The position numbers and the translations under genes are program-made. Below the pieces are notes generated by a model, which made no database searches, had not been told where the DNA came from, and was given only the letters and a program-made list of their open reading frames with translations. Positions 28,304 to 40,528 of a stretch of DNA of 64,000 nt are shown piece after piece (the first letter of the stretch is position 1; each line of letters opens with the position of its first letter). The DNA comes from Paludibacteraceae bacterium (GTDB lineage: Bacteria; Bacteroidota; Bacteroidia; Bacteroidales; Paludibacteraceae): NCBI GenBank assembly GCA_016285885.1, contig JAEERP010000001.1, forward strand, positions 558,001 to 622,000, given 5' to 3'.

Positions 28304-30826
28304 ATGGTTGATCAAGACAGAATTATCCAAATCGACATTGACAAGGAGATGCGCTCCTCGTACATCGACTATTCAATGTCAGTGATTGTGTCCCGTGCGT
28401 TGCCAGACGTCAGGGATGGCTTTAAGCCAGTTCATCGCCGCGTCTTATTCGGTATGAGCGAATTGGGTTTAGTATCCAACAAGCCGACAAAAAAATCAGC
28501 AAGAATCGTAGGAGAGGTTTTAGGAAAGTACCACCCGCATGGAGACTCCTCCGTGTATGGGACCTTGGTACGTTTGGCCCAAGACTGGACATTGCGTTAC
28601 CCGCTCGTCTATGGTCAGGGAAACTTCGGATCCATCGACGGAGACTCTGCCGCAGCGATGCGTTACACAGAGGCTCGCCTGCAGAAGATAACGGAGGATA
28701 TTCTGGTTGATTTGGATAAGGACACTGTCGACTTCCAAGACAACTTCGACGGTGAGCATCAAGAGCCTACGGTTTTACCGACCCGCATCCCGCAATTGCT
28801 GGTGAACGGTGCTTCCGGTATCGCCGTCGGTATGGCGACCAACATGCCACCCCACAACCTTTCCGACACAATCGACGCCTGCGTGGCTTACGTGGAGGAT
28901 AAGAACGTCGACATCGAAACATTGATCAAACTGATCAAGGCGCCTGACTTCCCGACGGGTGGTACCATCTACGGCTACTCTGGCGTGCGCGACGCTTACC
29001 TGACTGGCCGTGGCCGCGTGGTCATCCGCTCTAAAGTGGAGATCGAAAACGAGAACGGTCGCGAGAAGATCGTCGTTCGCGAAATCCCTTACCTGGTGAA
29101 CCGCGCCGAGATGATCAAGGATATCGCTAACATGGTGGCCGAAAAGAAGCTGGAGGGCATCTCCAATATCAACGACGAATCGGACCGCGAGGGTATGCGT
29201 ATCGTGATCGACGTGAAACGTGACGCCAACTCAAACGTGTTGCTGAACAAGCTATACAAATATACAGCACTCCAGTCTTCCTTCAGCGTGAACAATATCG
29301 CATTGGTTCACGGAAGACCTAAATTATTGAATCTAAAAGAATTAATCGCTGAATTCATCGACCACCGCCACGAAGTTGTGGTTCGTAGAACTAAATACGA
29401 GTTGGCAGAGGCCGAGAAGAAAGCGCACATCTTGGAAGCACTAATCATCGCTGTGGACAACATCGACGAGGTGATCCGCATCATCCGCGCCTCCAAGAAC
29501 CCAGCCGAGGCGAAGGAGAACTTGATGAAACGCTTCGGATTCGACGAGGAGCAGGCGAAGGCGATCGTCGAAATGCGCCTCGGTGCATTGACCCAACTCT
29601 CCATCGACGAATTGAGGGCTAAGTACGATGACCTCATGAAGCTCATCCATCACTTGAAGGATATCCTCGCTAGCGAAGACCTCCAAATGCAAGTGGTGAA
29701 GGAGGAACTGCTCGACGTGAAGGCTAAGTACGGCGACGAAAGACGTACAGAGATTAAATATACTTCGGAGGAATTCAATCCTGAGGACTTCTATTCGGAC
29801 GATCAGATGGTCATCACCATCTCCCACCTCGGCTACATCAAGCGTACTCCGCTCGACGAATTCAAGGCACAAGGCCGTGGCGGCGTGGGATCCAAAGGAA
29901 GCAGTTCGCGCGACGAGGATTTCATCGAATACATCTATCCGGCGTCTATGCACAATACGATGTTGTTCTTCACCCAAAAGGGTCGTTGCTACTGGTTGAA
30001 AGTATATGACATCCCTGAGGGAAGCAAGACGACCAAAGGCCGCGCCATCCAGAACATGCTCAACATCGACGCAGACGACAAGGTGAACGCATTCATCAAG
30101 ATCAAGTCGCTGAACGACGAAGAGTTCTGTAAATCACACTACTTGATGTTCTGCACCAAACGCGGTATCGTGAAGAAGACCTCTCTGGAGGCTTATTCCC
30201 GTCCTCGCGCTAACGGTGTCAACGCCATCACCATCAGGGAGGACGACCAAGTCATCCAAGTAAGACAGACAACAGGAAATAGTGAAATCATCTTGGCGAA
30301 CCGCAACGGACGCGCCATCCGCTTCAACGAAACGAAAGTGAGGGAAATGGGTAGGACAGCGACCGGTGTACGAGGCATGACGCTCGATGGTCCGGACGAC
30401 GAGGTAGTAGGAATGATCACCATCAACGATCCTCAGACGGAGACGGTGATGGTCGTATCCGAACAAGGCTACGGAAAACGCAGCGACATCGAAGACTACC
30501 GCATCACCAATAGGGGCGGTAAGGGTGTCAAAACGATGAATATCACGGACAAAACGGGTCTTTTGGTCGCTATCAAGAGCGTGACGGACGAAAACGACCT
30601 GATGATCATTAACAAGTCCGGCATCACCATCAGACTGAAGGTGACCGACGTCCGCGTGATGGGCCGCGCCACCCAAGGCGTCCGTCTCATCAACCTCACC
30701 AAGAAAAACGACCAAATCGCATCCGTATGTAAGGTTCTTTCCCAGCCAGACGAGGAAGAGGAATTGGAGGGTGAGGAAAGCCAACAAGAATCAGGAGATG
30801 AGAACAATATTAACGAACAAAACTAA
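28304..30826 (+). CDS. gyrA: DNA gyrase subunit A
   Basis: Breaks and rejoins DNA in the A2B2 gyrase that introduces negative supercoils. The 840 residues contain the winged-helix and tower core with catalytic Tyr121 ([10 protein letters not shown]), and a C-terminal DNA-wrapping beta-pinwheel with GyrA-box-like [10 protein letters not shown] and NRGGKGVKT. In the quinolone-binding helix ([12 protein letters not shown]) the Ser equivalent to E. coli Ser83 is kept, but the position of E. coli Asp87 is Gly86. The tail is acidic ([10 protein letters not shown]). It is divergent from clpC, with a TPR gene 12 bp downstream. Confidence 0.97.
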
Positions 30827-38158: not shown

Positions 38159-38770
38159 TCACATCTTATAGGGCGTACGATTGACGATGGAGCGTCCCAG
38201 CGTCATCTCATCCGCATATTCCAACTCATCTCCAATAGAGACGCCACGTGCTATCGTAGAGATATCTATCTCATACTTAGACAATTTCTTATAGAGATAA
38301 AAGTTTGTCGTGTCGCCCTCCATCGTGGGACTTAGGGCTAAAATCACCTCTTTCACGCCTCCTGCCTCTATTCTGGCAAGCAATTCGTCAATCGCCAAAT
38401 CAGATGGTCCCACTCCGTCCATCGGAGAAATAACGCCACCTAGGACATGATACAAACCATGGAATTGCTGGGTGTTCTCGATCGAGATCACCTCATTGAT
38501 GCTCTCGACCACACAGATCAGAGAAGGGTCGCGCCGCTCATCCGAACAAATGCCACAGATCTCCGAATCCGATATGTTACGGCAAACCTTACAATATTGG
38601 ATACCATTGCGCAGGTCGATGAGAGCGTTTCCAAACCGCTCCACATCCTCACGACTCTGACGTAATAAATGCAACACCAACCGTAAAGAGGTCTTCTTAC
38701 CGATACCCGGCAACTTAGAAAACTCTTTAACCGCATTTTCCAAAAGGATCGAAGAACTTTGGTTGTCCAT
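38159..38770 (-). CDS. recR: Recombination mediator RecR
   Basis: Works with RecO (and RecF) to load RecA on gapped DNA. The 203 residues contain the helix-hairpin-helix ([17 protein letters not shown]), a C4 zinc finger ([16 protein letters not shown]), and a Toprim domain ([33 protein letters not shown]). Length is normal. First gene of the recR-membrane protein-HAD unit, with a TAAATTTG box at 38805-38812. Confidence 0.96.
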
Positions 38771-38839: not shown

Positions 38840-38865
38840 TTAACTCCTCGAGAGTCGAATATTTG
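38840..38865. repeat. 26-bp direct repeat, copy 1
   Basis: TTAACTCC, then TCGAGAG, then TCGAATATTTG. Copy 2 at 38926-38951 is the same at 24 of 26 positions (ACGAGAA in the middle). The centre of each copy is palindromic (CTCGAGAG-like). It is unrelated to the ACATTTGTAA dyads. Confidence 0.75.
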
Positions 38866-38925: not shown

Positions 38926-38951
38926 TTAACTCCACGAGAATCGAATATTTG
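38926..38951. repeat. 26-bp direct repeat, copy 2
   Basis: See 38840-38865; the spacing between starts is 86 bp. No function known. Confidence 0.75.
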
Positions 38952-39052
38952 CGCACAATTCGAATCATTGCCCGAAATATTCAATTTTTTAAAAATAGGG
39001 GAATCCATGTTTTAATCGGAATTTTTTCCAAAAATAACACGACCATAAAAAT

Positions 39053-39321
39053 ATACATTTGTAAACATGTAAATTTACCAAAATAATATATTACAAATGT
39101 AAAATACAGAAAATTTAACAGCATTTACAAAATAAAAACGGGACTTCATACGAAATTCAAGCCTAAGAATTGAACATTTGTAAAATTTTACAAGTAAGAA
39201 AAAAGCAAGCGCATACGGTCTATTATGTATCTATTTTTGTTCATTTAATAATCTACAAATCAGTATTTTATGTATAAATACATGAATTTAAACTTTAATG
39301 AAAAGATTTTTACTTGTAAAA
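39053..39321. promoter_or_regulatory. Dyad cluster A (operator-like)
   Basis: Holds exact ACATTTGTAA at 39055-39064, its reverse complement at 39091-39100, and another copy at 39174-39183. Also here are a perfect 16-bp palindrome (39178-39193, TTGTAAAATTTTACAA), the palindrome GTAAATTTAC (39069-39078), and TTTTACTTGTAAAA (39308-39321), the exact reverse complement of the element next to the regulator start. Confidence 0.65.
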
Positions 39322-39430
39322 AATAGAAAACAAGCTATTTATTCGATCAATCTTTATACTATCAAAAAAATATATAATACTATATTTCAGCGTTTTAATA
39401 AATTAAAGTTTCAGTAGAACTTTAAAACAG

Positions 39431-39655
39431 CTAAAAACAAGGGATTATAGGGTCAATTGAGGCGGTTTCGAAAACAATCCGGAGCGAAAACTGCCATAAC
39501 CAGGCTATACAAACAAATGAAAAACGGCAGAATAGAGCATCTACAAACCATTTTCCGACACGAGGGCGATCCTCAATACATTTAGGTGAAGATGCGGCCA
39601 GGAAACCTATAAAATGCGCTTTCTGGGCAAAAACTGATGGCTTAGCGATGTACAT
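39431..39655 (-). CDS. Doubtful 74-codon frame
   Basis: Open from an ATG at 39655 to a stop at 39431 inside a GC-richer island of the AT-rich region. The product is rich in Phe, Cys and Trp with hydrophobic stretches (IGFLAASSP; FSFVCIAWLWQFSLRIVF). There is no promoter box close by and no family I recognise. It may be the remnant of an older gene or a conserved non-coding element. Confidence 0.2.
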   Translation of the reverse strand: MYIAKPSVFAQKAHFIGFLAASSPKCIEDRPRVGKWFVDALFCRFSFVCIAWLWQFSLRIVFETASIDPIIPCF

Positions 39656-39805
39656 CCGTAAACGGACGGCAAAGGTTCACACTCTAAGAGATTTAAGAGC
39701 AACTGTTAGATCCGCATATCGGGCAGGTGGAAAGATAAAGTGCCACTTCTACCAACCGATTCTTTCTTTACTTTAAATACGTTTACACTTTAACTGCATG
39801 CATTG

Positions 39806-39927
39806 GTTACATCTGTAAACACATACTATGAGTTTTACATTTGTAATTTTACAAATATTAAACAGTATTTTACATCTATAAAAAAAAAGTTTATTACATT
39901 TGTAAAGTGAACATTTTACAAGTAAAA
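39806..39927 (+). promoter_or_regulatory. Dyad cluster B overlapping the regulator promoter
   Basis: GTTACATCTGTAAAC (39806-39820), ACATTTGTAA (39837-39846 and 39896-39905) and TTTTACAAGTAAAA (39914-39927). The copy at 39896 contains a perfect -7 box, TACATTTG (39895-39902), so the dyad and the promoter coincide. The last palindrome ends one base before the ATG. This is the layout expected for an autorepressed gene. Confidence 0.65.
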
Positions 39928-39928
39928 T

Positions 39929-40528
39929 ATGTATAATCGCATCGCAGAAATCATAAAAAAGGAAAATTTGAGCAATTCTCAGTTCGCTCAGCTCGTAGGT
40001 ATACAACCATCGGCTGTTACTCACCTATTGAATGGTAGAAATGAGCCCAGTATACAGGTTACGAAGAAGATTCTTGACACATTTCGAGGAATTAATCCAG
40101 AATGGTTCCTTTTTGGCGTTGGCGAAATGTATAGAAAAGCACCGGAACAAACTGAAAATAAACAAGATACGACTAAAAAGCCTGTAAGTTATCCTTATCA
40201 GCAGTCGTTATTTCCTGAGATTCCGATACCTCCACAGGAATTTGGCAAGGAAAACGAGTTAAGTGAGAAAGAGGAAACTGAGGCAATTTTAGGAAATCAA
40301 TCAACGTACGAACGACAAGTGCCCCTTCAGGAAAATTATCCTCAGAGCGGAATGAACAACATCCATTCACAGCCAGCGGCAACATCATCTGCTCCGGTAA
40401 GTCACCCTTATGAAGAAAAAAGGGAGAAACCGGAACCAACTCCGGTCACTCCCCGTATCGTCAAAAAGATCATCGTATTCTATTCGGACAACACCTACGA
40501 AGAATACGGTGCTCAACTGAACAACTAA
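39929..40528 (+). CDS. XRE-family helix-turn-helix regulator
   Basis: The 199 residues start with an HTH_3 domain (residues about 3-65: IIKKENLSNSQFAQLVGIQPSAVTHLLNGRNEPS, then INPEWFLFGVGEMY). A long Pro, Glu and Gln-rich, probably disordered stretch (about 70-170) follows. The end is a short ordered segment (RIVKKIIVFYSDNTYEEYG) that may mediate dimer or partner contact. The gene is preceded by an array of dyads, the last touching its start codon, so it probably represses itself. Its stop abuts the dnaJ stop from the other strand. Targets beyond its own region are unknown. Confidence 0.85.
   Translation: MYNRIAEIIKKENLSNSQFAQLVGIQPSAVTHLLNGRNEPSIQVTKKILDTFRGINPEWFLFGVGEMYRKAPEQTENKQDTTKKPVSYPYQQSLFPEIPIPPQEFGKENELSEKEETEAILGNQSTYERQVPLQENYPQSGMNNIHSQPAATSSAPVSHPYEEKREKPEPTPVTPRIVKKIIVFYSDNTYEEYGAQLNN

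What the first reader, a model, noticed from the sequence alone, without database searches (positions are those of the whole stretch)
39053..39927. Array of repeated dyads upstream of an XRE regulator, with the -7 box inside a dyad
The 10-mer ACATTTGTAA occurs five times within 850 bp (39055, 39091 inverted, 39174, 39837, 39896), and TTTTACAAGTAAAA-like palindromes occur three times (39186 with one mismatch, 39308 inverted, 39914). Two ACATTTGTAA copies in front of the gene extend to TACATTTG, which is the Bacteroidota -7 box, and the last palindrome ends one base before the regulator ATG. This looks like strong cooperative autorepression by an HTH protein with a long disordered tail. The size of the array (over 850 bp) is larger than needed for one promoter, so a looping, nucleoid-organising or segregation role is possible.
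Basis: partly seen in the sequence, partly recalled or inferred. Interest (0 to 1): 0.75.

Follow-up and report, generated by a model that had tools for sequence, protein, structure and literature searches.

The report
Conserved self-control array of one regulator
In front of the gene for a small DNA-binding protein lies a string of about ten copies of what is probably that protein's own binding site, one of them covering the promoter core, and relatives of this gene in many other bacteria carry a similar string, so the protein most likely limits its own amount; what else it does is unknown.

Summary
All five ACATTTGTAA copies lie where stated; the other 6 of the genome's 11 are scattered. Both exact TTTTACNNGTAAAA palindromes of the 3.75 Mb genome lie here. 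The conserved unit is TTTACAWWTGTAAA: ten sites, in clusters at -124 to -37 and -878 to -759 from the XRE start, plus a lone one at -281. Positions recur in eight related species. A matrix trained on these nine loci finds 131 sites against 6.8 expected in 21 further loci, all 21 enriched, and 69 before 17 relatives from other orders, but none before 12 weaker XRE hits. Where a site lies close to the start, 32 of 38 carry a forward TAnnTTTG -7 box, and spacings follow the DNA helix. Best reading: an old repressor that binds its own promoter cooperatively, perhaps looping to the distal cluster. In 14 of 17 other-order loci the distal cluster faces a divergent gene, an M14 peptidase in both proteins scanned; the window's genus lacks it yet keeps the cluster. 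No second array was found; an origin role is unlikely. Binding, repression and looping are inferred.

The parts
39929..40528 (+). XRE-type regulator, 199 aa: HTH (about residues 3-66), low-confidence middle, conserved C-terminal KKIIVFYSDNTYEEY
   Evidence: HTH_3 E 6.3e-9, 36.2 bits against cutoff 23; ortholog alignment; AlphaFold2 mean pLDDT 55.7, below 50 at 64-85, 87-90 and 105-162, strands 179-184 and 190-195
39892..39907 (+). start-proximal site (-37), TATTACATTTGTAAAG, with the -7-type box TACATTTG at 39895-39902
   Evidence: 12 of 12 core columns invariant in 8 aligned species; forward TAnnTTTG in 32 of 38 loci with such a site
39868..39883 (.). proximal site (-61)
   Evidence: score 11.2
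39847..39862 (.). weak proximal site (-82)
   Evidence: score 8.0, below the threshold of 9 used for most counts; 0 of 12 core columns invariant
39833..39848 (.). proximal site (-96)
   Evidence: score 16.0
39805..39820 (.). proximal site (-124)
   Evidence: score 13.7
39914..39921 (+). conserved half-site TTTTACAA next to the start codon; the full palindrome TTTTACAAGTAAAA (39914-39927) is particular to the window
   Evidence: 9 of 12 columns around it invariant; alignment
39648..39663 (.). lone middle site (-281) inside the GC-richer spacer
   Evidence: score 12.5; a site within -281 to -276 in 7 of 9 loci at score >7 (all but L036 and L009)
39430..39788 (.). GC-richer, fast-changing spacer between the clusters
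   Evidence: about 40-48% G+C in 200-base windows against 20-27% beside it; mean consensus share per column 0.56 against 0.67-0.69 in neighbouring distal and middle non-site DNA
39170..39185 (.). distal site (-759)
   Evidence: score 12.3
39089..39104 (-). distal site (-840), read leftwards it holds TACATTTG (39101-39094), a possible divergent promoter
   Evidence: 11 of 12 core columns invariant in 8 species
39059..39074 (.). distal site (-870), overlapping the next
   Evidence: score 10.2
39051..39066 (.). distal site (-878)
   Evidence: score 15.7

Best explanation
The array is the operator set of the XRE protein encoded right behind it. The protein binds TTTACAWWTGTAAA dyads. The start-proximal dyad covers the -7 box, so binding there should shut out RNA polymerase and repress the gene. 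Four more proximal dyads, spaced on one face of the helix, let dimers bind cooperatively and make the response steep. The distal dyads 640-760 bp further upstream probably hold more protein next to the promoter by looping, as the left and right operators of phage lambda do, and may also cover a second, leftward promoter. Shown by comparison: the sites, their gene association, conserved positions, the -7 overlap, the helical spacing. Inferred: binding by this protein, repression, cooperativity, looping, any inducing signal.
For: Sites at matching positions in nine loci of the genus, 10-14 per locus against shuffled means of 0.38-0.64 (training set). Held-out test: 131 sites in the last 1 kb against 6.8 expected from local dinucleotide shuffles, 21 of 21 loci p <= 0.01; at the stricter cutoff 70 against 1.2, 19 of 21 loci p < 0.05. 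Other orders: 69 sites before 17 relatives, 0 before 12 weaker XRE hits, 3.6 expected for all 29. The module keeps its sites beside different neighbours: recR/dnaJ, gyrA (L020), pyrK or pyrD, a divergent M14-type gene. Centre TT in 33 of 38 start-proximal sites against 77 of 260 others, Fisher p 1.5e-11. One locus per genus: 64 gaps below 80 bp, vector length 0.50 at 10.5 bp, 0 of 2000 random sets reach it, 15 gaps exactly 24 bp. Own genome: no second cluster among exact ACATTTGTAA, TTACN4GTAA or one-mismatch TTTACAWWTGTAAA matches.
Against: No binding or expression data. 8 of 46 loci have no site within -65 to -15. L114 has one site and L028 none at the strict cutoff. The -33 box TTTG is not at the recalled spacing of 19-21; where TTTG or TTGG is present it lies about 15-16 bases before the -7 box (read by eye). 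Distance between the two invariant sites is 803, 756, 813 or 816 bp in different species, not a fixed helical phase (positions). The counts treat related loci as independent; only one search used one locus per genus.
Confidence: 0.72

Rival explanations
1. The distal cluster is a second, leftward promoter with its own operators, co-repressed with the XRE gene. In other orders it serves a divergent M14-type peptidase gene; in Bacteroidales it would serve recR or an unannotated RNA. This can be true together with looping.
For: In 14 of 17 other-order loci the upstream gene is divergent; both of the proteins scanned are Peptidase_M14, the rest resemble them in their first 60 residues only by eye. 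In 10 of those 14 the outermost distal site holds a reversed TAnnTTTG and lies near the divergent start. Reversed against forward boxes at sites beyond -200: 12 to 4, 20 to 10 and 12 to 7 in the three groups. The -840 site of the genus, reversed -7 box, is nearly invariant.
Against: None of the three reversed-to-forward ratios is significant alone (p 0.077, 0.099, 0.36). In 6 of 6 same-genus genomes of another subclade the upstream gene is convergent, leaving 1-2.2 kb without a long annotated-looking gene. No Rfam family, no shared reading frame, no consistent folding signal.
Confidence: 0.4
2. The distal cluster in Bacteroidales is a relic of the promoter of the lost peptidase gene.
For: 0 of 16 genomes of the genus and 6 of 61 relatives have a match to the peptidase at E <= 1e-10, yet the cluster is there.
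Against: Site cores are kept at fixed positions while the DNA between them is not (11 of 12 invariant columns at -840, 0.67 mean outside). Which state is ancestral was not tested with a tree.
Confidence: 0.08
3. The protein is an autoactivator or dual regulator rather than a repressor.
For: Many sites lie upstream of the promoter, where activators sit.
Against: The most conserved site covers the -7 box itself, the usual place of a repressor.
Confidence: 0.1
4. The array is a nucleoid-organising, segregation or replication element that happens to lie before its gene.
For: Size over 850 bp, two clusters, high A+T, deep conservation.
Against: No second cluster in the genome by pattern; in complete relative G016 the gene at 0.885 Mb lies far from the skew minimum at about 2.3-2.7 Mb (40 stretches of 20 kb, 800 kb of 3.69 Mb). 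It lies about 0.2 Mb from the skew maximum, so a terminus link is not excluded. Neighbours differ between genera.
Confidence: 0.07

Closest known systems
Phage lambda CI and its operators OR and OL (recalled, no call)
   Same: HTH repressor of its own promoter, several dyad operators in two clusters hundreds to thousands of bases apart, cooperative spacing
   Different: Here a chromosomal gene present in 51 of 61 relatives searched, no lysogeny genes seen beside it, more sites, and a different protein tail
EspR of Mycobacterium tuberculosis (PMC3315491: abstract and passages)
   Same: HTH protein that needs a C-terminal part to multimerise, sites far upstream, autoregulation, a repression loop proposed
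   Different: EspR binds at least 165 loci; here strong sites cluster at one place
CopR/CopY operator TACANNTGTA (PMC7253601: listing and start of abstract)
   Same: The same inner palindrome
   Different: The window protein is HTH_3, whereas CopY is of another fold (recalled); no copper gene here
P2-type C protein and other XRE repressors of known structure
   Same: HTH region matches, best usable PDB matches E 2.6e-5 to 0.008
   Different: Only the HTH matches; nothing matched the C-terminal segment

Membership tests
Autoregulated XRE/CI-type repressor | HTH_3-type DNA-binding domain | tested here: met
   PF01381 E 6.3e-9, 36.2 bits against 23
Autoregulated XRE/CI-type repressor | Dyad operators at its own promoter | tested here: met
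   as sequence; binding itself not tested
Autoregulated XRE/CI-type repressor | Cooperative binding | tested here: inconclusive
   Helical spacing of sites only
Autoregulated XRE/CI-type repressor | Represses its own transcription | not testable with these tools
   -7 box inside the dyad is suggestive
Nucleoid-associated protein (EspR-like) | Many binding regions across the genome | tested here: not met
Chromosomal replication origin | At the minimum of cumulative GC skew | tested here: not met
   One complete relative, sampled; no sign change at the locus in the window; DnaA boxes not tested
Toxin-antitoxin pair | Toxin gene in the same operon | tested here: not met
   Convergent dnaJ begins right behind the XRE gene and divergent recR lies in front
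Known anti-phage defence system | Match to a defence family beyond the HTH | tested here: not met
   Four weak PADLOC matches within residues 3-64, best E 2.8e-4; only the XRE protein was scanned

The most novel reading that the evidence does not exclude
The array with its protein is a class-wide, self-contained nucleoprotein switch: two operator clusters that loop, covering a forward promoter for the regulator and a leftward promoter for a so far unseen RNA that replaced an ancestral peptidase gene in Bacteroidales, so that one old regulator counts its own copies and links this count to an unknown output.
Probability: 0.15. Interest if true: 0.75.

Novelty: new variant of a known kind. Interest (0 to 1): 0.5.

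Why it matters
Bacteroidia are dominant gut bacteria, and few of their regulators have known operators outside sugar-use genes (general knowledge). Here is a regulator with relatives in 51 of 61 genomes searched, a clear operator, an internal control (0 sites before 12 weaker XRE hits) and a predicted promoter, so its role can be tested directly. If the two clusters loop, it would be a lambda-like switch kept as an ordinary chromosomal gene; if the distal promoter is real, it points to a new RNA.

Tried and rejected
Chance in A+T-rich DNA: rejected by held-out counts and local shuffles, unrelated-XRE control and genome counts.

Structured RNA in the spacer: Rfam gave nothing at gathering score (one sub-threshold sR2 match E 0.4 and one tRNA in L023); folding z-scores of -500 to -140 ran from -2.5 to 0.7 on + and -2.7 to 1.3 on -, below -2 in 2 of 9 and 1 of 9 loci. 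Protein in the spacer: reading frames of 35 aa or more differ between species. A replaced cassette in the spacer: spacers of L032, L035, L036 and of L033, L034 still align at about 0.55-0.78 per 50 bases, so fast change is enough there; in L010 and L012 they do not align from about -728 to -232.

Origin of replication. Second regulated gene: off-array matches in the own genome were single sites (5 of 7 fetched stretches with one matrix site, 2 with none). A shared site before a Crp-like gene in three species (L088-L090) is kept as a note.

Structure model: mean pLDDT 55.7, so no fold search was run. PDB by sequence: none for the protein alone, six HTH matches for the profile.

Literature: searches listed no paper on this regulator or this motif in Bacteroidetes; the library lacks most subscription papers.

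Limits of the counts: one search matched 51 of 61 genomes but only the 30 best loci were fetched, so weaker relatives were not examined. Six of the 21 held-out loci are of the window's genus; the other 15 are of 15 further genera. For L010, L012, L020, L024, L025, L027, L030 the start used was approximate by roughly 6-33 bases (compare). L105 was dropped because its start could not be placed; its C-terminal motif was not seen, nor was that of L126 among the weaker hits. One search used mononucleotide block shuffles.

Full report
What is there. The window belongs to a 3.75 Mb genome in 46 contigs. Named close relatives are MAGs labelled Paludibacteraceae or Bacteroidales, most from rumen. Between recR (38159-38770, leftward) and the XRE gene (39929-40528, rightward) lie 1158 bases without a gene; dnaJ and grpE follow, convergent. 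The order tilS, two small genes, recR, XRE, dnaJ, grpE, uvrD is kept in six named relatives, L031-L036, as far as their flanks reach.

The observation. All five ACATTTGTAA copies are at the stated places, and the genome has 11 in all. The only two exact TTTTACNNGTAAAA palindromes of the genome are at 39308 and 39914. An alignment of eight species and a matrix built from nine loci show that the conserved unit is TTTACAWWTGTAAA. In the window there are ten sites at score above 7: -878, -870, -840, -759, -281, -124, -96, -82, -61, -37 from the ATG. Relatives have sites at -37 and -61 in 9 of 9, at -124 in 9 of 9, at -95/-96 in 9 of 9, and a distal cluster at about -690 to -960. The -37 core is invariant in 12 of 12 columns and the -840 core in 11 of 12, while other columns outside sites average 0.56-0.69.

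Beyond the genus. One search found the protein in 51 of 61 relatives at E <= 0.001, 40 of them with a single match; the 30 best loci were fetched. In the 21 of these that did not train the matrix, the last 1 kb before the start holds 131 sites against 6.8 expected, and each locus is enriched (p <= 0.01); at the stricter cutoff 70 against 1.2, 19 of 21 loci. In a draw of 148 genomes from the phylum, 25 had a match at E <= 1e-8, one of them the own genome. Seventeen of the other 24 hold a strong match (E <= 8.7e-23), all in the same class but other orders; 16 of the 17 show the C-terminal motif, the other could not be translated. All 17 have at least one site, 69 in all. Twelve weaker XRE hits have none. 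The control is natural: same kind of gene, other family, no array.

The -7 box. Sigma-A promoters of Bacteroidetes have TAnnTTTG at -7 and TTTG near -33 in B. fragilis; the -33 element was not seen in Flavobacterium johnsoniae (PMC7366714, passages). Of 46 loci, 38 have a site within -65 to -15. Of these 33 have TT in the centre, against 77 of 260 other sites, and 32 read as forward TAnnTTTG, 1 as reverse. So the box sits inside the dyad and in the right direction. Loci are related, so the p value of 1.5e-11 is optimistic.

Spacing. With one locus per genus (26 loci), the 64 gaps below 80 bp cluster at about 13-18, 24, 34-35, 44-47, 55-57 and 65-67 bp; the vector length at 10.5 bp is 0.50 and 0 of 2000 sets of uniform random gaps reach it. 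This is what dimers touching each other on one face of the helix would give. Uniform gaps were the only control.

The distal cluster. In 14 of 17 other-order loci the upstream gene is divergent and both proteins scanned are Peptidase_M14. In ten of them the outermost distal site holds a reversed -7 box and lies close to that gene's start (L113's predicted start is farther). So there the array serves two promoters. The window's genus has no match to the peptidase (0 of 16 genomes), recR stands divergent in nine loci, and in six further genomes of the genus the upstream gene is convergent; the cluster persists in all of them. Reversed boxes outnumber forward ones in the distal part in each group but never significantly. 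Hence two readings remain: a loop back to the XRE promoter, or a leftward promoter for something not annotated. They do not exclude each other.

The spacer between the clusters is richer in G+C and changes faster than its neighbours. No shared reading frame, no RNA family, no steady folding signal was found. Its role, if any, may be distance.

The protein. HTH of about 66 residues, a low-confidence middle, and a C-terminal segment such as KKIIVFYSDNTYEEY kept across orders. AlphaFold2 gives two strands there at modest confidence with only seven sequences. I infer that this segment mediates oligomerisation; nothing tests it.

What it is not. There is no second array among the patterns searched in the own genome, so an EspR-like global role is unlikely, though weak sites could not be scanned. 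In complete relative G016 (its size suggests Paludibacter propionicigenes, recalled) the gene is far from the skew minimum, and in a sample of 800 kb the only three-site cluster was at this gene.

Verdict. A real, deeply conserved operator array of a probable autorepressor. The kind is known (multi-operator HTH autorepressors); the size, the two-cluster plan and its persistence across a class with changing neighbours make it a new variant. Interest 0.5: a clean, testable lead on an uncharacterised widespread regulator, without a known output.

Noticed in passing
window 38842-38865 and 38928-38951: A second, unrelated conserved element, AACTCCACGAGAATCGAATATTTG, two direct copies (one with changes). 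20 of 24 columns are invariant in 8 species. With up to one mismatch its core is in 16 of 61 relatives, mostly once per genome, backwards control 0; it stands beside the XRE locus in nine genomes of the genus and in G026, elsewhere in others. Function unknown.
   Followed up: partly
L135:1501-1545 and L134/L147: In G018 that element lies next to GTTCCACGTGGAAC, which looks like a parS-type palindrome (recalled); in G035 it stands near contig ends in a repeated stretch with an inverted partner.
   Followed up: no
window 39403-39425: Inverted repeat TTAAAGT-N9-ACTTTAA at the left edge of the spacer; TTAAAGT is invariant in 8 aligned species.
   Followed up: partly
L088:2021, L089:2071, L090:2025: In three species of the genus a single TTACATTTGTAA-type site stands about 25-40 bases before a gene that looks Crp/Fnr-like by its sequence; possibly a second target or only a promoter.
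   Followed up: no
L017, L018, L025, L029 and L022, L023: In other Bacteroidales the regulator lies directly before pyrK-like (4 loci) or pyrD-like (2 loci) genes; one of each was checked by Pfam.
   Followed up: partly
window 28304-30826 and L020: gyrA lies about 9 kb before the regulator in the window and directly behind it in G026.
   Followed up: no
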